DNA of 21,520 nt from a virus: IMG/VR virus record IMGVR_UViG_3300031364_000015, positions 1-21,520 of that record; one strand, written 5' to 3'. Every line of letters starts with the position of its first letter. Position 1 is the stretch's first letter. The position numbers and the translations under genes were made by a program. A model generated the notes under the pieces. That model did not search any database, had not been told where the DNA came from, and worked only from the letters and a program-made list of their open reading frames with translations. Of the stretch, positions 921 to 21,373 are shown piece by piece.

Positions 921-952
921 TAAATATACGACATTTTTAAATAAAATTAAAC
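921..952 (-). promoter_or_regulatory. Phage-type promoter P1 (GTTTAA-N18-TATATT)
   Basis: On the minus strand the site reads GTTTAA, an 18-base spacer ending in AATGTCG, then TATATT. It is one of eight matching sites in this window. The -35 box overlaps the TAA stop of the gene to its right (947-949). Transcription should start near 914, placing the GGAGG of the next gene almost at the RNA 5' end. Confidence 0.75.
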
Positions 953-3597: not shown

Positions 3598-3627
3598 AAT
3601 ATACGACATTATTACTTATTAATAAAC
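3598..3627 (-). promoter_or_regulatory. Phage-type promoter P2 (GTTTAT-N18-TATATT)
   Basis: On the minus strand it reads GTTTAT, an 18-base spacer ending AATGTCG, then TATATT. The first base of the -35 box is the last base of the TAG stop of the homing-endonuclease-like gene (3627-3629). RNA should start near 3591, so the AAAGGAG of the next gene would be at its very 5' end. Confidence 0.75.
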
Positions 3628-5405: not shown

Positions 5406-5434
5406 AATATACGACTTTATTTACTAAAATAAAC
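5406..5434 (-). promoter_or_regulatory. Phage-type promoter P3 (GTTTAT-N17-TATATT)
   Basis: On the minus strand it reads GTTTAT, a 17-base spacer ending AAAGTCG, then TATATT. It lies 2 bases after the end of the degraded Cys-rich gene and directs transcription of the genes at 5182-5355 and 5069-5170 up to the terminator at 5044-5070. Confidence 0.8.
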
Positions 5435-6703: not shown

Positions 6704-6797
6704 AAAACAGTTGCTATGGTGAGAATCGAACTCACGATCAGGATTTAATTGCTTACCTAAAAGCGTTTACCAACATCCGCCACATAGCAACTGTTTT
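6704..6797 (-). repeat. 15-bp inverted repeat enclosing a tRNA
   Basis: The ends of the tRNA at 6711-6789 extend outward into a perfect 15-bp inverted repeat (6704-6718 against 6783-6797, AAAACAGTTGCTATG). On the minus-strand transcript the 3' arm is followed by more T bases (complement of 6702-6707). The extended stem could act as a processing signal or weak terminator between the tRNAs and the methyltransferase gene. Confidence 0.65.
6711..6789 (-). tRNA. Leu-type tRNA with damaged or unusual anticodon arm
   Basis: A 79-base gene with a 7-bp acceptor stem (TGCTATG / CATAGCA), a D arm with a 3-bp GCG/CGC stem and a GG in the loop, and a perfect T arm (GTGAG, TTCGATT, CTCAC). The D arm (GGCGG...GGTAAACGC) is of leucine type. 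Between D and T arms, two readings are possible. One is a 5-bp stem TTTAG/TTAAA (with a G-U pair) around an 8-base loop GTAAGCAA. The other is a leucine UAG loop TTTAGGT followed by AAGCA, in which the 5' half of the stem has been lost (about 5 bases). CCA is not encoded. The amino acid is uncertain. Confidence 0.6.
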
Positions 6798-6894: not shown

Positions 6895-7074
6895 CTAATA
6901 TACGACTTTTTTATTTATTTTAAAACTACATTCAACTATTTTCTTTTCTGCATCATCAGATACAAAATAATTACAACAACCACAAGCAATGCTACCGGCT
7001 TTTACTCCATCATTACCGTTTGGACACTCTGTAAAAAGTTGTTTCTTGTTGTTTATTTTATATTTTATTTTCAT
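6895..7074 (-). CDS. Cys-rich CPN family protein, intact copy, 59 aa
   Basis: A small protein beginning MKIKYKINNKKQLF, then TECPNGNDGVKAGS, then CGCCNYFVSDD and IVECSF. The cysteines (CPN, CxxC, EC) suggest one zinc site. The ATG has a TAGGAG site and follows promoter P5. The C-terminus (KINKKVVY) and the TAG stop are encoded by the DNA that also forms the -35 and -10 boxes of promoter P4. Two degraded relatives lie at 5437-5730 and 9221-9402. It is the only intact copy in the window. The function is unknown. Confidence 0.7.
   Translation of the reverse strand: MKIKYKINNKKQLFTECPNGNDGVKAGSIACGCCNYFVSDDAEKKIVECSFKINKKVVY
6897..6926 (-). promoter_or_regulatory. Phage-type promoter P4 (GTTTTA-N18-TATATT), tRNA promoter
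   Basis: On the minus strand it reads GTTTTA, an 18-base spacer ending AAAGTCG, then TATATT. It lies wholly inside the coding end of the Cys-rich gene and directs tRNA-Tyr, whose first base is about 10 bases after the -10 box, then the second tRNA and the methyltransferase. Confidence 0.75.
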
Positions 7075-7098: not shown

Positions 7099-7128
7099 AT
7101 TATACGACGTTTTTCTTGTTTTATAAAC
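7099..7128 (-). promoter_or_regulatory. Phage-type promoter P5 (GTTTAT-N18-TATAAT)
   Basis: On the minus strand it reads GTTTAT, an 18-base spacer ending AACGTCG, then TATAAT, a perfect sigma-70 -10 box. It lies between the stop of the 84-aa gene (7135) and the Cys-rich gene, whose ATG at 7074 is about 18 bases from the expected RNA start. Confidence 0.8.
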
Positions 7129-7911: not shown

Positions 7912-7940
7912 ATTATACGACATTTTCTAAATAAATAAAC
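7912..7940 (-). promoter_or_regulatory. Phage-type promoter P6 (GTTTAT-N17-TATAAT)
   Basis: On the minus strand it reads GTTTAT, a 17-base spacer ending AATGTCG, then TATAAT followed by TAAT. This is the best match to the shared motif. It lies 1 base after the stop of the 247-aa gene (7942-7944), and RNA would start about 23 bases before the GTG of the 81-aa gene. Confidence 0.85.
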
Positions 7941-10849: not shown

Positions 10850-11680
10850 TTAACTCCAAAATTCTTTTATTCTTTTTTTGTTTTTTAACATATTTAAAGC
10901 CTTACTTTCGATTTGTCTTATTCTTTCATAAGATAAACCTAAAATTTCTCCTATTTCACAGAAATTTATTTTTTCATTTAATTTATTGTACCTTAGCTGA
11001 ATAATTCTTTTTTCTCTTTTTGGTAATTCGTTTATTGACTCTTTTAAAATATCACCCAACTCTTTTTTTTCTAAAACATCATAAACAATCTCTTTTTCAT
11101 CAGTAATTGTTTCTATAACAGCTCTGCCACAATCTTTTTCTGAATAATCTAAACTTGAAATTTCTCTTTTCCCTTTTGTTATATCTTTTATTTTTATTAT
11201 TAAACCTTCATCTAAATTAGAAAAATCAGACAATTCATTAATACTTGGATATCTACCGAACATATCAAAAAATTCTTTTTCTTTTTTTATAATTGTGTCA
11301 ATTTTTTCAATAACCCAAAGAGGAATTTTAATTATATTTAAATCTTTTTTTATATATCTTAAAATTTTTTGTCTTATCCAATAAAAACAATACGTTGAAA
11401 ATTTTATATTTTTTCTGTAATCAAATTTATCTACAGCTTGAATTAATCCAAGATTTCCCTCTTGAATTAAATCAAAAAAATCTACCCTTTTTGATTTATA
11501 AGCTTTTGCAAAAAAAACAACTAGCTTTAAATTAGATTTTATTATTTTATTTTTTATATATAATATTTTATTTTCATTTTTTTCTTTTTCTAATTTTATG
11601 AAAAGTTTTTTTATTTCATTATTTGTTAATGTTTTGTTTTTATTTATTTCTTTAAAATAAATCGACAATTCTTTTTTCAT
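10850..11680 (-). CDS. Phage RNA polymerase sigma factor, sigma-70 family
   Basis: A 276-aa sigma factor with regions 1.2, 2, 3 and 4 in order. Region 2 includes DFFDLIQEGNLGLIQAVDKF (2.1-2.2) and FSTYCFYWIRQKI (about 94-106; 2.3-2.4), close to the primary-sigma sequence that melts and reads the -10 box. Region 3 follows (about 125-195). Region 4.2 is IGEILGLSYERIRQIESKAL (about 243-262). In that helix the residue equal to Arg584 of E. coli sigma-70 is Tyr251, while the Glu, Arg and Gln that follow are kept. The protein lacks region 1.1, so it is an alternative factor. It would bind host core RNA polymerase and probably reads the promoters P1-P8. The start follows the previous stop by 2 bases. 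Confidence 0.92.
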   Translation of the reverse strand: MKKELSIYFKEINKNKTLTNNEIKKLFIKLEKEKNENKILYIKNKIIKSNLKLVVFFAKAYKSKRVDFFDLIQEGNLGLIQAVDKFDYRKNIKFSTYCFYWIRQKILRYIKKDLNIIKIPLWVIEKIDTIIKKEKEFFDMFGRYPSINELSDFSNLDEGLIIKIKDITKGKREISSLDYSEKDCGRAVIETITDEKEIVYDVLEKKELGDILKESINELPKREKRIIQLRYNKLNEKINFCEIGEILGLSYERIRQIESKALNMLKNKKRIKEFWS

Positions 11681-11682
11681 TT

Positions 11683-12012
11683 TTATCTCTTTAATTGTAA
11701 AATTCTCCTATATTCAACCGGAATTTTGTTTTTAGTAGCATAATTTAATCCATATTTCATTCCAGAGCTCATACCGTAATCAATATAAAAAATATGTTTT
11801 TCAGCAACACCTTTCCAAGCTAGTCCTGCATCAATTCCAATTTGTCTTTCTTTAGGAAAATCATCATTTAAAATACCTTCCTGTGTATACAACAAATGAG
11901 AAGCTATTGGTGATTCTCCCCGCATTAAAGAGTCCCTAACACACATTCTTGCATATTTTATATTTCTCTCTACATCTCCAGCGTATGGTGACTCAAGAAT
12001 TACTCTTATCAT
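11683..12012 (-). CDS. DUF7768 family protein
   Basis: The start is taken at ATG 12012 (MIRVILESPYAGDVERN), with GGAG 9 bases before it; the frame is open further to 12063 but that overlaps the Cys-rich gene. The protein (109 aa) has the features of a common phage family: ILESPYAGDVERNIKYAR, SLMRGESPIASHLLYTQ, ERQIGIDAGLAW and a C-terminal strand-helix. The family (DUF7768) is widespread in phages and prophages. Its fold resembles nucleoside-deoxyribosyltransferase-like proteins, but the reaction is not known to me. It overlaps the gene upstream by 20 bases and is followed at once by the sigma factor. Confidence 0.75.
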   Translation of the reverse strand: MIRVILESPYAGDVERNIKYARMCVRDSLMRGESPIASHLLYTQEGILNDDFPKERQIGIDAGLAWKGVAEKHIFYIDYGMSSGMKYGLNYATKNKIPVEYRRILQLKR

Positions 12013-12193
12013 AATCTTTTCTCCATTTTTTAGTAAAATATAACAAATCATTTGTATATTCAAACAAATTTAAAACAACTCTTCCTTTTGATGCATATCT
12101 TTTACAACATGGGCACGGATTAGATAAACTGTTTTTACATTCTGGGTACAAACAAGGATCGTTATTTTCAAACACTGTTTTTATTTCTTTCAT
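11993..12193 (-). CDS. Small Cys-rich protein, 66 aa
   Basis: Five cysteines in a pattern CLYPEC, then CPCC, within the first 32 residues form a likely zinc site, followed by a hydrophobic and basic C-terminal helix (LFEYTNDLLYFTKKWRKD). An AAGGA site is placed before ATG 12193, only about 10 bases from the RNA start expected from promoter P7. It is the first gene of the sigma-factor operon. The function is unknown. Confidence 0.7.
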   Translation of the reverse strand: MKEIKTVFENNDPCLYPECKNSLSNPCPCCKRYASKGRVVLNLFEYTNDLLYFTKKWRKDYDKSNS

Positions 12194-12209: not shown

Positions 12210-12238
12210 ATTATACGATATTTTATTGATTTTTAAAC
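12210..12238 (-). promoter_or_regulatory. Phage-type promoter P7 (GTTTAA-N17-TATAAT), sigma-factor operon
   Basis: On the minus strand it reads GTTTAA, a 17-base spacer ending AATATCG, then TATAAT and TAAT. The -35 box contains the TAA stop of the DNA ligase gene (12233-12235). It drives the Cys-rich, DUF7768 and sigma genes, so if the phage sigma uses it the factor would boost its own synthesis. Confidence 0.85.
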
Positions 12239-13516
12239 AGTTCTTTTTTCACCATGAACAGCCTTTAATGTAGGAAACCTTAAAGATCTCGTTCCCTTAA
12301 TGTTATCAGTTACTTCAAAATATTTTACAGTTATAATTTTATTTATAATTTTTTCTGGATGAAAAAACCAATCAACCCTTTGCTCCATAGATAACCCCGA
12401 ACCAACTTTTACTTCTTCTCCATTATAATTTATAACTAAATCAGATACCATTTTTTCTTCTGTGTCTTTTCCATTAACAATATGCCTTATGTTTCCAGTT
12501 TTAATATCTAATACTTTAAATTCGCTGTCTTTAAATAATTTATGTTTTAATATATCATTTGATCTTTTACCTTTATATGTTGTATCTTTTCTTAATATGA
12601 GACCTTCCCAATTTCTTTTTCTTGCCTGTTCTTTTAATATATCAAGGTGTTTTTCATCCTTCAGAAAAATTTGTTTAATAACTTTTAAATTATTTGATTT
12701 TAAATCTATTTTATTTAATTTTTCTATTCTTTCTGAAAACGTTTCTTTTGATTTTTTATTGTTAAAATCATCTAAAGACAAGTAATCAAAAATTAAATAT
12801 TTTGGATTTTCTATAGTATAGTTTTTTCTGTTCCACACCCTCATCATTCCAGAAAAATCTTCTTTTCCTTTTTCATCAACTAAGCAGCATTCTCCATCTA
12901 AAACAACGTTTTTTAGATTTAATTTTTCTATTTCTTTTTTTAAAACATCCATCGTGTTAAATTTTTGACCAGTTCTGGAATATAAATCAACATTTCCATC
13001 CGCGTCTATAATTGATATGCACCTCAGACCATCCATTTTTCTCGATACATAATATTTTTCACTTATTTGAAATTTATTGTATTTCTCTAAAGATATAGCT
13101 AAAGCAACTGAAAACTCAGGAATAAACCCGGGAATTACATTATTTATTAATTTTGAATCAATTCTGCATTTTAAATTTTTATCTATAATTTTATAAAACA
13201 ATTCTTTATATTCTTTACTTCTACTATTCAAAAAACATAAACATTTTTTTATAGCTTCGTGTCCGGTTGTTTCCCTATTAGATAGTTTTGTTAATAGTTC
13301 ATCCAAAGAAACATTATATATTTCAAAAACATTGTTTAAATCTTTATTTTTTATTAAATTTTTAGATGATACAAAAAATTTTATAAAAGGATTATATGTC
13401 CAATAAAGAATTTTTTTAAACTCTTCATTATTTTTATTTTCTTTTAATATTTCTTTTTTTCTGTTTGAGCTAGTGGTTTTGTTTAATTCATTTATTATTT
13501 CAATTATATTTTGCAT
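12233..13516 (-). CDS. ATP-dependent DNA ligase
   Basis: The nucleotidyltransferase motifs are clear. Motif I is SRKMDGLRC (KxDGxR), with the adenylated Lys at about 160. Motif III-like LDGECCL is near 206-212, motif IV EGLILRK is at 304-310, and motif V ILKHKLFKD is at 322-330, followed by an OB-fold domain. At 427 aa it is typical of phage ATP-dependent ligases. It seals nicks in phage DNA during replication and repair. The N-terminal 140 residues before motif I form a helical domain. The start overlaps the fused small-gene/HNH frame by 17 bases, with a weak GGG-rich ribosome site. Confidence 0.95.
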   Translation of the reverse strand: MQNIIEIINELNKTTSSNRKKEILKENKNNEEFKKILYWTYNPFIKFFVSSKNLIKNKDLNNVFEIYNVSLDELLTKLSNRETTGHEAIKKCLCFLNSRSKEYKELFYKIIDKNLKCRIDSKLINNVIPGFIPEFSVALAISLEKYNKFQISEKYYVSRKMDGLRCISIIDADGNVDLYSRTGQKFNTMDVLKKEIEKLNLKNVVLDGECCLVDEKGKEDFSGMMRVWNRKNYTIENPKYLIFDYLSLDDFNNKKSKETFSERIEKLNKIDLKSNNLKVIKQIFLKDEKHLDILKEQARKRNWEGLILRKDTTYKGKRSNDILKHKLFKDSEFKVLDIKTGNIRHIVNGKDTEEKMVSDLVINYNGEEVKVGSGLSMEQRVDWFFHPEKIINKIITVKYFEVTDNIKGTRSLRFPTLKAVHGEKRTV

Positions 13517-13694
13517 ATTTTTCCCTATAACTTCTTAATTCCTTCAAAGATAATGGTTTTAAAATTCCATTTCTTATTTCTAAATATAATCTTATTCTCC
13601 AGGGAAGCTTTCCCAATTTTTCTAATGTTCCAACCTTATTAACTTTAGTATAAACGCATCCATCTTTACACCTAAATGTTTCTCCAATTAACAT
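13500..13694 (-). CDS. Small gene fused in frame behind an HNH endonuclease, 64 aa
   Basis: Inside the larger 13500-14087 frame there is an ATG (13694) with a strong AAAAGGAG site 5 bases ahead. From there the protein is MLIGETFRCKDGCVYTKVN, then KLGKLPWRIRLYLEIRNG, and ends SLKELRSYREKYAKYN. It looks unlike the HNH part, has two cysteines and its own ribosome site, so it is probably the original phage gene and the HNH coding part was added in front without a stop codon. The function is unknown. It can be made alone or as the tail of the fusion. Confidence 0.6.
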   Translation of the reverse strand: MLIGETFRCKDGCVYTKVNKVGTLEKLGKLPWRIRLYLEIRNGILKPLSLKELRSYREKYAKYN

Positions 13695-14087
13695 ATTATC
13701 TCCTTTTGTTTTTTTCTGTTTTTCAATATTTCTCCAATGTTTTTGATTTTCTTTTGGAGAAACATATTCCAAATTTCCGTAAAAATTATTGCTTTTTACC
13801 CGATCTATATGGTTTACCTCTTCATCTTTTTCTTTATAAAAAGCAATCATAACTTCTCTATTTAAAGAACAGGCTACCCTCTTACCTAAAACAAAATACC
13901 TTATTCTTAAATAACCGTATCTACATTTTATTGGTTTTAAATATTTTCCTTTTTTGTTTTTAACTCTGCCTAAATTACTTATCTTGTAATCACTATATGG
14001 ATGTCTTACTTTTACCCACAATTCAATTTTATTTGAAAGTTTAAAAAATTTTAAAATATTAATTATTATCTTTTTTGTTTTATCCAT
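13500..14087 (-). CDS. HNH homing endonuclease (NUMOD4-HNH), fused to a downstream gene
   Basis: The protein has a NUMOD4 domain (ELWVKVRHPYSDYKISNLGR, about 22-41) and an HNH domain (about 75-117: LNREVMIAFY, VNHIDRVKSNN, NLEYVSPKENQKH), with the catalytic His at about 93. This is the architecture of free-standing phage homing endonucleases. They cut a defined DNA site lacking the gene, so that repair copies the gene in. The open frame has no stop at the end of this domain and runs on into a 64-aa protein with its own start at 13694. The start overlaps the thymidylate kinase end by 22 bases, with an AGGA site. Confidence 0.85.
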   Translation of the reverse strand: MDKTKKIIINILKFFKLSNKIELWVKVRHPYSDYKISNLGRVKNKKGKYLKPIKCRYGYLRIRYFVLGKRVACSLNREVMIAFYKEKDEEVNHIDRVKSNNFYGNLEYVSPKENQKHWRNIEKQKKTKGDNMLIGETFRCKDGCVYTKVNKVGTLEKLGKLPWRIRLYLEIRNGILKPLSLKELRSYREKYAKYN

Positions 14088-15132: not shown

Positions 15133-15824
15133 TATTTTCTCCAAGTTTCGTTTATTAATAAATCAAAATAAGGTAATTGTTCTATATATTGACAAAATTC
15201 TTTCCACCAATACATTTTATGTAATTTTCTACTATGATATATGTTTTTTAAATTTTCATAATTTCCAGTCCAATGACTTTCTAATAAATAACCTCCAGGT
15301 AAATTAGCATCAATATCCTCAAAAAGATTTTTCATTTTTTTATTTATTTCTTCTAACTCATACGCATTTAAAGTTTTGCCTACTCTTGAATCTTTTAATT
15401 TATTATATATATTTATTCTGAAATTTAAATACCCAAGGTGTTTTATACTAATTTTTCTTTCAAAATCATCTTGTGTTACTTCATTTTTTGTAATACAATG
15501 CATTGTAGATTCGCTATTACGAACGGTGGCAATTTTAAAAGTATCCATTTGTGCCCAAAACTTTATAGAACCCTTTATATCCATTGATACTAAAATTTGT
15601 CTCATAAACTTTCGTTCTTGATGAGCAAGCTTCCCTTTTAATAATTTTTTTATTAATTTTTCATCTTCTACGCCAATTATACAATGATTATAAGATTTAT
15701 AATACAATAAACGATAAAATAAATTTTTTTGTATGGAATCACTTTTATTTTTACTTTTCAAGGCGTTACGTATACCTAAAATTGCAGGATACATATTATA
15801 AACGCATATATTTTTAATAATCAT
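15132..15824 (-). CDS. Conserved phage protein, possibly ThyX-like
   Basis: A 230-aa protein. The start is ATG 15824 with AAAGGA 7 bases ahead (a TTG two codons earlier is open but less likely). The central block HQERKFMRQILVSMDIKG, then KFWAQMDTFKIATVRNS and STMH is strongly conserved in phages as I recall, as is the C-terminal LHKMYWWKEFCQYIEQLPY. The pattern is reminiscent of ThyX-type thymidylate synthase folds (Arg and Ser near a nucleotide site), and a place beside thymidylate kinase fits, but I do not see the full RHRxxSxxxxSR motif. Treat the enzyme role as a suggestion only. Confidence 0.6.
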   Translation of the reverse strand: MIIKNICVYNMYPAILGIRNALKSKNKSDSIQKNLFYRLLYYKSYNHCIIGVEDEKLIKKLLKGKLAHQERKFMRQILVSMDIKGSIKFWAQMDTFKIATVRNSESTMHCITKNEVTQDDFERKISIKHLGYLNFRINIYNKLKDSRVGKTLNAYELEEINKKMKNLFEDIDANLPGGYLLESHWTGNYENLKNIYHSRKLHKMYWWKEFCQYIEQLPYFDLLINETWRK

Positions 15825-16158
15825 TAACAATTCCTTTTATTTTATTAAAAATTCTTTTATTTATTTTCCCTGGTAAAACAACAAAACTTAAAATATAACT
15901 ACATAAATTACTTTTTTCTTCTAACGACAATGTATAGCAGTTTAACCAAAAATAAAAAAACCTTTTAACTTCTCTCAGGTACTCTCTATCTAACTTGTTG
16001 TTAAATTTAATTTTCCAACCAAAAAGAAAAAAGCCGATAAACAAATATTTATAATAATCTGCGTCAAATTGGGCGTTTTTTGAACGATTTACCCAATATT
16101 TGATAACATCTTCATTAATTGTTATTTCGTTAAAATTTTCGGGTATTTTGAGTTTCAT
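15814..16158 (-). CDS. Hypothetical protein, 114 aa
   Basis: The start is ATG 16158 (MKLKIPENFNEIT), 5 bases after a GGAG site; the frame is also open to a TTG at 16173. Aromatic-rich middle (YYKYLFIGFFLFGWKIKFNN, then KRFFYFWLNCYTL) makes one or two hydrophobic patches, which may be buried helices and not true membrane spans. The C-terminus is basic (KINKRIFNKIKG). It overlaps the methyltransferase gene by 29 bases and the next gene by 11. The function is unknown. Confidence 0.65.
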   Translation of the reverse strand: MKLKIPENFNEITINEDVIKYWVNRSKNAQFDADYYKYLFIGFFLFGWKIKFNNKLDREYLREVKRFFYFWLNCYTLSLEEKSNLCSYILSFVVLPGKINKRIFNKIKGIVNDY

Positions 16159-17875
16159 CTTTGCTCCAATCAATCAATCTAATATCATTTTTTAACAATT
16201 TTGTGTTCGACTTCCAATATTTTTTAATATCTTCTTTGCTTAAGTTTAATTCTTTTTCACACTCAGTTTGATCTTTTACCCAACCATTAAGTCTCGCCAT
16301 CTCAACATTAAATTTCATAATAAATTCTTTATTAGGTTTGCAATGAATATTTCCGTTTTTATAAGCTTTTATTCTCATAAATTCTTTATTAATGTTCCTA
16401 TTAAAATAATAAAAAATATTTTCTTTTCCTGGTGACCACTCAAAATCAAAACTACTGTTAATATTTTTAAAACCTAAATTATCACCAATTACACAAATAT
16501 CGTTTAAAAATTCATGAGCTCTATTACTAAGCCCATTTGGATAGTCATAACTATTATAACCCAAACTATCAAAACAATTATATCTTTCAAATACTAGTCT
16601 ATAATCAAGGCTAAAATTAGTATAATCCTTAAAACCATACCTCCAAGTATCTGTAACAAAATGAGTATTTGATTTATAGTTTTTGATATTATCCTTACTT
16701 GCCATTTCGAAGTATACGTCTTTTAACTGATCATCTATATAAATATTAGCATTTTTTAACACCCAAATTATCAAAGCATATGCATTACTAACAGTAAAAT
16801 CAATATTAGTATGGGCCGTTAATTTATCTAACATTCTTTTTCTACTTTTTCCAGTCAATTTTTCTGTAATCTTATTTAAATTATCAAACAATTCTTTCCA
16901 GTATAGATTTTTTAATCCTTTAATCTTTTCTTTTAAACCACATTTTAGTTTAGGTAAATCAACACCTAATTCTTTAAACAAATCATAATCTAACTGCTCT
17001 AATGATTTATATGTAGTTAATAGTTTTTCAAAATCATTTCTATAAAGTTCTTCCAATGACTCAATAAGATTTTTACCTTTGACTAATTCTTTTATTTTTT
17101 CTGTTTTTGATTTTTCACTTTGAAAGGTTGTATTATAATTCTTTTCTTTATCACAATCAATTTTAAAATTATTTTCAAACCAAAGATCAAAAGGGTCTAT
17201 TTTCAAATTATCTCTGTCGATTGTAGCGAACTTTATCTTTAGTATATCTACTGTTGCGCGAGCTTTTCTATACTCAGAGTCAACGAAGCTATCATTCCCT
17301 ATCACGTCACAGCGACCTTTAAGATTTTGTAATCTTTCTGCTAAATTTCCATGTAAGTTATTAAAATCTCTGTTCTCACATCTTTTATTTATTATACTCA
17401 TTATTTCTTTATCATTTTTCCATCTCTCTGGAACTACAAAATAAATATAATTACAATTAGCTTCACGAAGTATTTTAATCATCCACTGCTTATATTCTTT
17501 ATATGGAGGATTACAAAAAATAACATCAACACGTTTATCAATTAGTGTTTGCATATGAAAATCAGTACCAATAACCATCACATCAGCAGGAAGATTATTT
17601 ATAAGTATTTCTGATTTCTCAATTGCATATTTGGTTATTTTAGTTTGTGATTTATATTCATCTTTAGGGGGGGGTAATAAACTTTCCATAACTGTAAACA
17701 CGTTACCATTTCCAGCACCAATATCTAAAATTGAAAAATTATTTATTCTACCATGATAGTCTTTTTTATCGTGTGTATAATCATAAAATGCAGATTGTAT
17801 CATATTAGAAGTTGTTGGGTAAAACTCAAAATCTTGATTGTTGATTTTTAGTTTGTTTAACAAATCTTTTTTCAT
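16130..17875 (-). CDS. DUF4942 DNA adenine methyltransferase
   Basis: The N-terminal domain has ILDIGAGNGN (49-58), the cofactor-binding motif I, and DVIFCNPPYKEYKQW (117-131), the NPPY catalytic motif of N6-adenine methyltransferases, in gamma-type order. The C-terminal half matches DUF4942, which is often joined to such methyltransferases: WRYGFKDYTNFSLDYRLVF near 405, and KAYKNGNIHCKPNKEF near 505 followed by a helix ending GWVKD. It probably modifies phage DNA, by itself or with unknown specificity. A run of eight C in the reading frame (PPP at 68-70) is intact. It has an AGGGG site and its ATG overlaps the actin gene stop by ATGA. Confidence 0.88.
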   Translation of the reverse strand: MKKDLLNKLKINNQDFEFYPTTSNMIQSAFYDYTHDKKDYHGRINNFSILDIGAGNGNVFTVMESLLPPPKDEYKSQTKITKYAIEKSEILINNLPADVMVIGTDFHMQTLIDKRVDVIFCNPPYKEYKQWMIKILREANCNYIYFVVPERWKNDKEIMSIINKRCENRDFNNLHGNLAERLQNLKGRCDVIGNDSFVDSEYRKARATVDILKIKFATIDRDNLKIDPFDLWFENNFKIDCDKEKNYNTTFQSEKSKTEKIKELVKGKNLIESLEELYRNDFEKLLTTYKSLEQLDYDLFKELGVDLPKLKCGLKEKIKGLKNLYWKELFDNLNKITEKLTGKSRKRMLDKLTAHTNIDFTVSNAYALIIWVLKNANIYIDDQLKDVYFEMASKDNIKNYKSNTHFVTDTWRYGFKDYTNFSLDYRLVFERYNCFDSLGYNSYDYPNGLSNRAHEFLNDICVIGDNLGFKNINSSFDFEWSPGKENIFYYFNRNINKEFMRIKAYKNGNIHCKPNKEFIMKFNVEMARLNGWVKDQTECEKELNLSKEDIKKYWKSNTKLLKNDIRLIDWSKDETQNTRKF

Positions 17876-18909
17876 TCTGTCCCCTTTTTGTTTTTTAAAA
17901 ATTTTCTTACTACTAATTTTACTAACCCTTCCGCATTACAAAAAACCGGATCTTCTAAAATTTCAGCATTATTGTACATTTGCTTTAAAACATCTTCAAA
18001 TAAAATAGAACCTCCGCCCATAAAAATTATCTTTTCTGGACTATAATCACCAAAATTTTCAATAATAGAGTTCCTTAGTTTATCTTCATATCTTTTCATC
18101 GCAACTATGTAAATATCGGAAATATCGATCGGCTTTCCGTCTTTTGAAAATCCTTTTCCTGACCTGATTATTTTTTCTATTTCATGAGTATCTTTTTTAA
18201 TTTTATATTTTAACTTCAACTCTTCTTTTAAATATTTAAAAAACCTTTCAGCTCCACAATCAAAAGTAAAATTTTCCACAGGAGATAAAACATTAATATA
18301 TTGAGCTATTGCGGTTCCTCTCCCTATATCAATCCCTATTATTTCTTTTTCAGCCCATTCCTGATCAATGTTAAACTGATCATTAATTACTTTTGACATA
18401 AAACCTATCCAACACTGATACCAAACCCCAACTCTTTTTATATTAAAAGTTTTTCTGTCAATTTCTTTACCAACTGTGTTATAAAAAACAACTTCATGTT
18501 TACCTTTAATTTTATTTATTACTTCATCTTCCCTGGATATATTATTTTCTGTAAGATCTATACCAACCATAACATCTTGATTTTCTTTTTTTATCATCTT
18601 TGCAACAGCAACTAAAGTGTAGTTTACTGATTTTTCAAGATAAATTTCATCATTTGATACATATTGTATTTCGGAAGGAGGAGCTATCTTTACACAAATG
18701 TTTCCATACCCTACCGGATCTCCAGAATCAATAGAAGCGATAATATCATCATCTTTTGAAAAATCCAATACCGGGTGATGTTTTAATTTCTCAAAATTAA
18801 CATAAGTATATTTTGAGTCAAAAATCTTTTTTTCTAATTTTTTTGTGTTTTCGTTATAGGAAACAATTTTATTTCCATTTCTTCCTGCATCTACCCCAAC
18901 AATCAACAT
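17872..18909 (-). CDS. ParM-like bacterial actin
   Basis: A 345-aa actin-superfamily ATPase. Phosphate 1 is VGVDAGRNGNK (4-14), phosphate 2 is IGIDIGRGTAI (191-201), and the adenosine motif is IIFMGGGS (294-301). The end PVFCNAEGLVKL (321-332) is the typical ParM/StbA C-terminus (P.fANa.G). Such proteins form filaments that push apart plasmid or phage DNA copies, or place them in the cell. It is the first gene after promoter P8, with a GGAG site. The likely partner is the ribbon-helix-helix protein at 14683-15132. Its presence is consistent with a lysogenic plasmid-like state or with positioning of phage DNA during lytic growth. Confidence 0.88.
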   Translation of the reverse strand: MLIVGVDAGRNGNKIVSYNENTKKLEKKIFDSKYTYVNFEKLKHHPVLDFSKDDDIIASIDSGDPVGYGNICVKIAPPSEIQYVSNDEIYLEKSVNYTLVAVAKMIKKENQDVMVGIDLTENNISREDEVINKIKGKHEVVFYNTVGKEIDRKTFNIKRVGVWYQCWIGFMSKVINDQFNIDQEWAEKEIIGIDIGRGTAIAQYINVLSPVENFTFDCGAERFFKYLKEELKLKYKIKKDTHEIEKIIRSGKGFSKDGKPIDISDIYIVAMKRYEDKLRNSIIENFGDYSPEKIIFMGGGSILFEDVLKQMYNNAEILEDPVFCNAEGLVKLVVRKFLKNKKGTE

Positions 18910-18935: not shown

Positions 18936-18965
18936 AATATACGATTTATTTTGTTTATTTTTAAC
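18936..18965 (-). promoter_or_regulatory. Phage-type promoter P8 (GTTAAA-N18-TATATT)
   Basis: On the minus strand it reads GTTAAA, an 18-base spacer ending ATAAATCG, then TATATT. It lies 5 bases after the stop of the terminase gene and about 20 bases from the expected RNA start to the ATG of the actin gene. It is the most divergent of the eight in its -35 box. The long operon from 18909 to 12233 has no other copy. Confidence 0.65.
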
Positions 18966-18970
18966 AACTT

Positions 18971-21373
18971 TTAATAAGGCTGTTGTACTTTTTTTAATTG
19001 CTTTAAAATATCTTCATTTATTTTGTTTGGATTTGTTATTATTCCAGATCCGGAATTCTCTTTATCAATGTTTACTATTTTCTCAAACCCAATTAATGCT
19101 AGATTTGTTGCATGACCCAAGTGGTCGGGGCCGGTTTTTCCTATCACTTCGTATAGAGCTCCGGTATTTTCATCTTCATACCTTTCAACAACAAGATTTG
19201 CCAAATGTTGAATAAATTCTTCTACAGACGGGTCAAGCTTTGGTATTTTTAACTGCTTTTCTTCAAACCTTTGTAATAAATTTTTAAACGACCCAACCCT
19301 TGAAACGGTTACTGTTTTTTGTCCTTCGTTCCACATTGGTTTGATAAGATTTTTTTTTGCTTTTTGTTTTTTTCTTTCATCTGTATCATAAAAACATCCA
19401 TAAGCTCTGGTTGGAAATTTCCGAACCAAATAAGAATTCCTATCAACCCCTATTCCATTTGCGTCATTAACAACAATCCTCGCTTTAAAAAATTTTATTA
19501 TATCACACGCTCTTTTTACGTGATCTGTTTGTTGAGCAGCGGGATATCCATTTTTTTTCAAACTTTCATCATCTATTTTTTCTACATATATTACTTTTGG
19601 ATTTTTTTGTTCCGGAAGAAAATTATTTGCCACAACCGTTACCCAGGAAACTGTACCCCAATCTATGCCAACACTTACGTTTTTTGCATTTCCAAGTCTT
19701 TGATATGTATTAACAAAACTTGGATCAATACATTGTTCAAATATTTCTCTTGTTATTTGAGATTCTTTATCCAAATAAGCATATCCCATTATTTCATTCC
19801 AAAATTGATGAACAAATCTAAAAGTGTGGTACTTATACAATATTTCTTTTCCTGTTTTCCAGGGTAACATCATATAAGTTATTCTATAAGAAGCTCTATC
19901 GTGAATCAAATGAGGTCTTTCTGGTATCCATCTTGAATTTTTTATATAAACCTGTGTTGTTCTATCTATATAAACTCCACAAAACTTACAACCAAGATAA
20001 ACTTTATTTAATTTTTTCAAATAATTTTCGCTTACTGTACTTATGCCCCCGCCTATTTCAAAAAAATTAATTATATTATCAGGAAATTCTAAAATTTGCT
20101 CTTTTTTGCATTTTGGATTGGGACAAGTAACATGCCAAGTATATCCACAACCTTTTTGAAACATAAGATCAATACCCGAATTCGGGAAAACAGGAGTTGA
20201 TATTCTGGTTTTTTTACCTAATTCACTATGAGAAGTTGACTCAGAAAAGATATCCTCTATTTGAGGATTTTGACTTTCATATTCGTCAAAAGTTAATTTA
20301 TCTGAGCTGGGCCCCCTTCCTTGGTAATCTGTCCATGAAGAATCAATTGTGTAAAAACTCCCATTTTTGAAAGCCTTACTTAATAGGTTGTAAGGCCTCT
20401 TTAGATGAATTGCTAAATTTGGAGATTTTTCTATAGCTACGCTTATTTTCTCTTTTGATATTTTCTGTGCCATTCCAGCAGTTGGGAAAATATGTCTAAC
20501 GTTTGTGTATGGCCTAGATACTGACAAATAAATATTTTCATTTATTTCATTTTCTGTCATTTCTGAATTGTGAACTAAAATTCCATTTACGTAAAAATAA
20601 GGACTATTTATATTTTCTAATGACAAATCATAAGTTTCTTTTTCTCCTATTTTTTTTATACAAACTATTTGATTGTTTTTTAATATTTCTTTTCCAATTA
20701 AGTTTATATGTAATTTTTTATATATTTTAAATTCTTTATAAATTTTCAAAAAATTACCTATTTTTAAATTTTTTGCATATATAACTTTTTTTAAATTATC
20801 TTCCCAAATTCTTTCTAAGGCAGAGCAATCTAAATAAAGTCCATTTTTTAAAATTATTCTATAAATTTCTTTTTTCCCCGACTTCCAAATATCCTTTACT
20901 TTACTTAAAGTATTTTTTCCCCCATCCCAATTTAAAATTTCTCCTCTATATTTTTCTTTATATAAATCTTTTATTGTCTCAAATTTTTTATTTAAAATAA
21001 TAAAAGAATCTTCTGTGATACATTGTCTGCATTTAATTGTAGATTTATCTTTTGCTTTATCGTTTTGATATTGATTTAAATATATTCTTGCGGCCTTAAC
21101 TAATTGACCATCTTTGTTTAATTTTAAATTTTTTTTATCTTCATCCCCAAGCATCATGCTTATTTTTGCATCTTCATATGAAAACTTTCTGCCATAAATT
21201 ACCCGATTTTCTTCAACAAAGGTTTTCATATCTCCGGACCCTTTAGAAAATTCTATGAAATCCTTTATTCTGTTTTTCATTGAAAAGAATATATCTTGAG
21301 ATTCTTTTTTGATTATATCGTCATCAGATTGAATTAAATCTATTATGTTCCCGGTAAATTTATCTAAATCCAT
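18971..21373 (-). CDS. Terminase large subunit with intein
   Basis: An 800-aa precursor of the DNA-packaging motor. After removal of residues 118-269 the mature protein has 648 aa, normal for a large terminase. The ATPase P-loop of the RQxxxST type (KCRQ then SEMTE) is split between Q117 and S270. Walker B is LTFDEYE (360-366), the coupling motif is RISTP (390-394), a zinc-binding CxxxxC...CxxC group (C417, C422, C462, C465) follows, and the RNase H-like nuclease has GIDWG (Asp571), NDANG (Asp637) and DHLGH (Asp750). It cuts and packages concatemeric DNA into the procapsid using ATP. It starts 3 bases after the previous stop with a weak ribosome site, so coupled translation is likely. Confidence 0.95.
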   Translation of the reverse strand: MDLDKFTGNIIDLIQSDDDIIKKESQDIFFSMKNRIKDFIEFSKGSGDMKTFVEENRVIYGRKFSYEDAKISMMLGDEDKKNLKLNKDGQLVKAARIYLNQYQNDKAKDKSTIKCRQCITEDSFIILNKKFETIKDLYKEKYRGEILNWDGGKNTLSKVKDIWKSGKKEIYRIILKNGLYLDCSALERIWEDNLKKVIYAKNLKIGNFLKIYKEFKIYKKLHINLIGKEILKNNQIVCIKKIGEKETYDLSLENINSPYFYVNGILVHNSEMTENEINENIYLSVSRPYTNVRHIFPTAGMAQKISKEKISVAIEKSPNLAIHLKRPYNLLSKAFKNGSFYTIDSSWTDYQGRGPSSDKLTFDEYESQNPQIEDIFSESTSHSELGKKTRISTPVFPNSGIDLMFQKGCGYTWHVTCPNPKCKKEQILEFPDNIINFFEIGGGISTVSENYLKKLNKVYLGCKFCGVYIDRTTQVYIKNSRWIPERPHLIHDRASYRITYMMLPWKTGKEILYKYHTFRFVHQFWNEIMGYAYLDKESQITREIFEQCIDPSFVNTYQRLGNAKNVSVGIDWGTVSWVTVVANNFLPEQKNPKVIYVEKIDDESLKKNGYPAAQQTDHVKRACDIIKFFKARIVVNDANGIGVDRNSYLVRKFPTRAYGCFYDTDERKKQKAKKNLIKPMWNEGQKTVTVSRVGSFKNLLQRFEEKQLKIPKLDPSVEEFIQHLANLVVERYEDENTGALYEVIGKTGPDHLGHATNLALIGFEKIVNIDKENSGSGIITNPNKINEDILKQLKKVQQPY
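20567..21022 (-). mobile_element. Mini-intein in the terminase P-loop
   Basis: Residues 118-269 of the terminase form an intein. It begins with Cys118 (CITEDSFIIL, block A), ends YVNGILVHN (block G) with Asn269, and the next residue is Ser270. At 152 aa it has no room for a homing endonuclease domain. The Hint-fold region LYLDCSALERIWEDN and AKNLKIGNFLKI is where block B lies; the usual TxxH reads S-A-L-E, so Glu187 replaces the His normally needed for splicing. Block F is ETYDLSLENINSPYF. It sits exactly in the ATP-binding loop, a favourite conserved site. Splicing would give an uninterrupted RQS join. Confidence 0.9.

What the first reader, a model, noticed from the sequence alone, without database searches (positions are those of the whole stretch)
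10850..11680. Phage sigma factor likely matched to the promoter set, with an altered -35-reading residue
The sigma factor keeps the -10-reading region of primary sigmas, fitting the TATAAT/TATATT boxes. In region 4.2 the position equal to E. coli Arg584, which contacts the -35 element, is Tyr251. The window's promoters have GTTTAt and not TTGACA. A change in this residue is a ready explanation for the new -35. The sigma gene is itself under such a promoter (P7), which would give positive feedback.
Basis: partly seen in the sequence, partly recalled or inferred. Interest (0 to 1): 0.75.

Follow-up and report, generated by a model that had tools for sequence, protein, structure and literature searches.

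The report
Phage sigma factor and matching promoters

Summary
The sigma gene (11680-10850, minus strand), Tyr251 at the E. coli Arg584 position, and the promoter set are all real. The window has eight minus-strand promoters, and a 62-kb relative (G001) has 14 including orthologues of all eight: GTTTA, 17-18 nt, TATAWT, with an invariant TCG just before TATAWT that the finding did not mention. The sigma gene is third in an operon under one of them.

The causal claim is only partly supported. GTTTA(C) is also the -35 box of T4 early promoters, read by the host's Arg584 sigma. GTTTA promoters also occur in related phages where no Tyr251-type sigma was found. Arg584 reads base -31, but the box departs from TTGACA mainly at -33, read by Glu585/Arg588, which are kept. 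What Tyr251 does fit is base -31: C in 0 of 14 sites here against 6 of 10 in relatives. A second unique change, Trp122 at the His455 position in region 3.0, which reads -14, fits the TCG.

Best model: a phage-stage sigma using host core polymerase, reading GTTTA/TCGTATAWT and feeding back on itself (about 50%). Main rival: host sigma-A reads these promoters. New member of a known kind; function untested, host unknown.

The parts
10850..11680 (-). Phage sigma-70-family gene (276 aa, regions 1.2 to 4.2, no region 1.1), called sigma1
10928..10930 (-). Codon of Tyr251, the E. coli Arg584 position, first residue of the predicted recognition helix
11315..11317 (-). Codon of Trp122, the E. coli His455 position (region 3.0, extended -10 reading); Glu458 equivalent (Glu125) kept
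12210..12238 (-). P7: GTTTAA-N17-TATAAT with TCG; promoter of the operon that ends with sigma1
11993..12193 (-). First ORF after P7 (66 aa, no Pfam match)
11683..12063 (-). Second gene after P7, DUF7768 protein
18936..18965 (-). Class A promoter, GTTAAA-N18-TATATT with TCG
7912..7940 (-). Class A promoter, GTTTAT-N17-TATAAT with TCG
7099..7128 (-). Class A promoter, GTTTAT-N18-TATAAT with TCG
6897..6926 (-). Class A promoter just upstream of the tRNA-Tyr gene (6888-6804), GTTTTA with TCGTATATT
5406..5434 (-). Class A promoter, GTTTAT-N17-TATATT with TCG
3598..3627 (-). Class A promoter, GTTTAT-N18-TATATT with TCG
923..952 (-). Class A promoter, GTTTAA-N18-TATATT with TCG

Best explanation
The gene makes a sigma-70-family specificity factor that binds the host's core RNA polymerase (inferred from the kept region 2 core-contact residues). 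It directs the polymerase to a phage promoter class GTTTA-N17/18-TATAWT carrying TCG at -15..-13. That class serves the terminase region, tRNA and accessory genes, the operon of this sigma itself (feedback), and in relative G001 a second sigma gene. Host sigma-A probably starts the class weakly, since P7 already has 10 of 12 consensus hexamer bases. GTTTA is a -35 box shared with related phages, not a product of Tyr251. The lineage-specific novelties are the TCG, paired with Trp122 in region 3.0, and the absence of C at -31, paired with Tyr251. Shown: the sigma homology, the residue changes, the promoter set and its restriction to the two sigma1-bearing contigs. Inferred: that this sigma reads these promoters, and the residue-to-base pairing.
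For: Full sigma domain match. 8 window and 14 G001 class A sites, TCG 14/14, GTTWA 13/14. Class A sites lie at orthologous places in both contigs (8 of 8), with TCGTATAWT identical in all 8 pairs. A scan of 2.9 million viral contigs with a strict form of the motif found a repeated class A set only in G001. Relatives without a sigma1-type gene have GTTTA but 'TA', not 'CG', before TATAWT (9/10), and no pooled excess of TCGTATAWT (2 seen, 1.27 expected). Tyr251 and Trp122 were each seen only in this lineage among 96 sampled relatives, and they sit at positions known to read -31 and -14, two places where class A differs from the relatives' promoters.
Against: Co-occurrence rests on one evolutionary event (window and G001 are 94% identical in sigma1). 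Class A promoters also precede the sigma genes, as host-read early promoters would. P7 scores 10/12 against the ordinary sigma-70 consensus. No excess of TTGACA-type promoters, which would mark a separate host-read class, was found in G001. G008 shows 4 TCGTATAWT against 0.97 expected. No transcription data; host unknown.
Confidence: 0.5

Rival explanations
1. Class A promoters are early promoters read by the host's own primary sigma; sigma1 is their product and reads another class, such as the CTGGATTAATTAA...TATAAT sites (class B) near the structural genes of G001.
For: GTTTAC is a host-read -35 box in T4-like phages. Related phages use GTTTA promoters where no sigma1 was found. Class A drives both sigma genes, as an early class would. 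P7 matches the sigma-70 consensus at 10/12. Class B is found at G001 41-46 kb near late genes.
Against: -14 is C in 14/14 sites, opposite to the G preferred in TGn promoters. Class A covers many operons seen between 1 and 44 kb of G001, including the terminase region. A class-B-like site is also in G008, which lacks sigma1, so class B does not track sigma1 either.
Confidence: 0.3
2. The second sigma (seen only in G001, 43.9-44.8 kb) reads class A, and sigma1 has another role.
For: It keeps His455/Glu458 equivalents and is itself behind a class A promoter.
Against: Its recognition helix has lost the Arg586 and Gln589 equivalents (Gly, Met). The window fragment holds class A but ends before that gene, so co-occurrence is not tested.
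Confidence: 0.12
3. Sigma1 binds core mainly to displace host sigma (takeover), with no strong promoter preference; class A uniformity reflects an activator or repressor site overlapping the promoters.
For: Uniform sequence beyond the two hexamers (TCG) could be an operator.
Against: The uniform bases are exactly the -35, extended -10 and -10, and the spacer varies by one base (17/18) as sigma recognition allows. Region 4.2 contacts are intact apart from position 584.
Confidence: 0.08

Closest known systems
phiEco32 / 7-11 phage sigma factors (phi32_gp36, SaPh711_gp47)
   Same: Phage sigma directs host core RNAP to its own promoter set; 7-11 has a bipartite consensus and eight mapped promoters (PMC8948821).
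   Different: 7-11 consensus is GTAAtg-(16)-aCTA; here the -10 stays TATAWT and the sigma is close to primary sigmas. No experiment here.
T4 early promoters read by host sigma-70
   Same: -35 box GTTTAC at -36..-31 and a TATAAT-like -10 (PMC1524935).
   Different: No phage sigma is needed; T4 early promoters carry TGn (PMC2988021), not TCG, and C at -31.
SPO1-type sigma cascade of Bacillus phages (from general knowledge)
   Same: Terminase is distantly SPO1/Herelleviridae-like, about 26% identity; G001 has two phage sigmas, which suggests stages.
   Different: This sigma is a near-complete primary-type sigma; the promoters differ; genome organisation is only partly known.
Primary and group 2 sigma factors (RpoD/SigA)
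   Same: Regions 1.2-4.2, 33% identity over aligned E. coli positions.
   Different: No region 1.1; H455W, R584Y, T440L, W433Y equivalents.

Membership tests
Sigma-70 family | Region 2 and region 4 domains above curated cut-offs | tested here: met
   Pfam 62.9 and 57.7 bits against 24 and 24.1
Sigma-70 family | Core-contact residues of region 2.2 (E. coli D403, Q406, E407) kept | tested here: met
   D70, Q73, E74
Sigma-70 family | Binds core RNA polymerase and directs initiation | not testable with these tools
   Needs purified protein
Group 1 (primary) sigma | Region 1.1 and unaltered DNA-reading residues | tested here: not met
   Protein starts at region 1.2; four DNA-reading positions changed
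Phage sigma family phrog_351 | Profile match | tested here: met
   E 3.5e-49
Phage sigma with its own promoter class | Promoter class restricted to sigma-bearing phages | tested here: inconclusive
   TCG form as a set only in the two sigma1-bearing contigs, but a single lineage
Phage sigma with its own promoter class | Promoters transcribed by the sigma holoenzyme | not testable with these tools
   In vitro transcription needed

The most novel reading that the evidence does not exclude
A primary-type phage sigma has shifted its DNA contacts: Trp at the His455 position reads a TCG extended -10 in place of TGn, while Tyr at the Arg584 position drops the -31 contact, giving a private promoter code that still overlaps host sigma-A enough to be started by it.
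Probability: 0.3. Interest if true: 0.6.

Novelty: new member of a known kind. Interest (0 to 1): 0.45.

Why it matters
It offers a natural pairing of sigma and promoter changes at positions where E. coli genetics already assigns contacts (584 with -31, 455/458 with -14). One small purified protein and eight short promoters would test whether specificity can shift by these two residues while TATAAT is kept.

Tried and rejected
Pattern scan of IMG/VR for the strict promoter: 45 stretches, of which only G001 shows a repeated class A set; the other loci, most with a single match, look like chance. Scan for other Tyr-type sigmas by the codons of YERIRQIE: the 7 further hits are unrelated genes, so residue-to-promoter covariation could not be tested beyond this lineage. 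Terminase scan of GTDB genomes to find the host: no relative. Enriched triplets before TATAWT in other sigma-bearing phage loci (L086-L098): no comparable class found. I first took relatives G007 and G008 as having no sigma; they do carry a weak sigma region 2-like domain in head-region proteins, so the statement is limited to 'no sigma1-type, Tyr-bearing gene found'. The strength of the -31 result (p 0.0016) is reduced by shared ancestry, and two of the ten sites (G004, G008) may be chance. Absence of C/G at -31 within class A alone is not informative, because the surrounding spacer is nearly all A/T.

Full report
What is there. The window is a 21,520-base fragment of a phage (IMG/VR record, 25.6% GC). 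The ORF at 11680-10850 on the minus strand is a 276-residue sigma-70-family protein. It starts at region 1.2 and runs through region 4.2. A predicted model (mean pLDDT 75.6, weak in the 171-203 linker) matches primary sigma chains of initiation complexes in the PDB (E about 1e-14; global TM is low, about 0.4, so the domain placement in the model should not be trusted) and puts Tyr251 at the start of the recognition helix.

Residues. Against E. coli K-12 RpoD, numbering by alignment: region 2.2 core contacts D403/Q406/E407 are kept. Y430, W434, Q437, R441 are kept, W433 is Tyr and T440 is Leu. H455 is Trp122 and E458 is kept. R584 is Tyr251; E585, R588, Q589 are kept. In a set of 96 relatives from viral and bacterial contigs (plus E. 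coli RpoD and the second G001 sigma in the tally), position 584 was R in 79, K 8, V 4, Q 3, I 1, E 1, and Tyr at 584 or Trp at 455 appeared only in this lineage (the set is biased to what the pattern search returns).

Promoters. CGTATAWT occurs eight times in the window, all on the coding strand, against 1.22 expected. The 61.9-kb relative G001, whose sigma is 94% identical, has 14 such sites with a -35 box, including orthologues of all eight. The class A consensus is GTTTA(T/A), 17-18 nt, TATAWT, with TCG at -15..-13 in 14 of 14 and GTTWA in 13 of 14. In G001 the class runs from 1.2 to 43.9 kb and precedes both the sigma1 operon and a second sigma gene. The structural genes lie behind other sequences, and a conserved CTGGATTAATTAAAC...CACTATAAT form occurs at 41-46 kb.

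Does Tyr251 explain GTTTA? Three tests speak against it. First, T4-like early promoters share GTTTAC at -36..-31 and are read by host polymerase with Arg584 (PMC1524935). Second, related phages found by terminase show GTTTA-17/18-TATAWT above chance (10 against 1.33 in G003, G005, G007, G009), and no Tyr-type sigma was found in them; a weak sigma-like protein of G007 lacks the RERIRQ helix. These are fragments, so a missing gene is not proof. Third, published genetics assign Arg584 to -31 and Glu585/Arg588 to -33 (PMC2613000). The box departs from TTGACA chiefly at -33, where the reading residues are unchanged.

What the changed residues could explain. R584C relaxes and R584A alters -31 preference (PMC2613000). 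Class A has only T or A at -31 (0 of 14 C) while relatives have C in 6 of 10 (p 0.0016, not independent). H455 and E458 read -14 (PMC2613000). Class A has C at -14 in 14 of 14, the relatives have TA at -14/-13 in 9 of 10, and His455 is Trp only here. So the two unusual residues face two positions that differ between this lineage and its relatives. This is a correlation from one lineage, not a demonstration.

Mechanism and rivals. The best reading is a phage-stage sigma that redirects host core polymerase to class A promoters, including its own operon. Host sigma-A can plausibly start the class, since P7 matches 10 of 12 consensus bases. The chief rival is that class A is simply the host-read early class, and sigma1 acts on another. 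Sequence alone does not separate these, and confidence is set accordingly.

Known systems. Phage sigmas with private promoters are established, for example phiEco32 and 7-11 (PMC8948821). This is a new member of that kind if the function holds; the TCG extended -10 is its distinctive mark.

Noticed in passing
G007 (L076:5988-6740), G008:37931-40564, G010 (L066:6502-7359), G011 (L077:8646-10679): Related phages carry weak sigma region 2-like domains in proteins of the head gene region, next to the portal gene in G007 and close to it in G008; the G007 protein starts with a 'YPIGHIS..KKISKGKW' stretch shared with a G001 portal-adjacent protein that carries a helicase instead. Possibly a sigma-like cargo of the virion; 'sigma' is not mentioned in the polyvalent-protein survey PMC5512222.
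   Followed up: partly
window 18971-21373 and G001 15503-17878: The terminase large subunit carries an intein (Pfam Intein_splicing 31.3 bits, below cut-off) at the same site in both; the intein sequences differ strongly although the flanking terminase is nearly identical. G009 (L064) has a LAGLIDADG insert in its terminase.
   Followed up: partly
G001 about 41.3, 44.9, 46.0 kb; G008 upstream of 30200 and 90406: A second conserved promoter-like class, CTGG(A)TTAATTAA...TATAAT, shared by phages of this group.
   Followed up: partly
window 6710-6789: tRNA-like gene with an odd four-base anticodon call (aagc), beside a normal tRNA-Tyr behind a class A promoter.
   Followed up: no
window 17872-18909: ParM/actin-like partition gene (phrog_691) present in the window, missing at the matching place of G001.
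   Followed up: no
window 13500-14087: NUMOD4/HNH homing-endonuclease-type gene next to the ligase.
   Followed up: no
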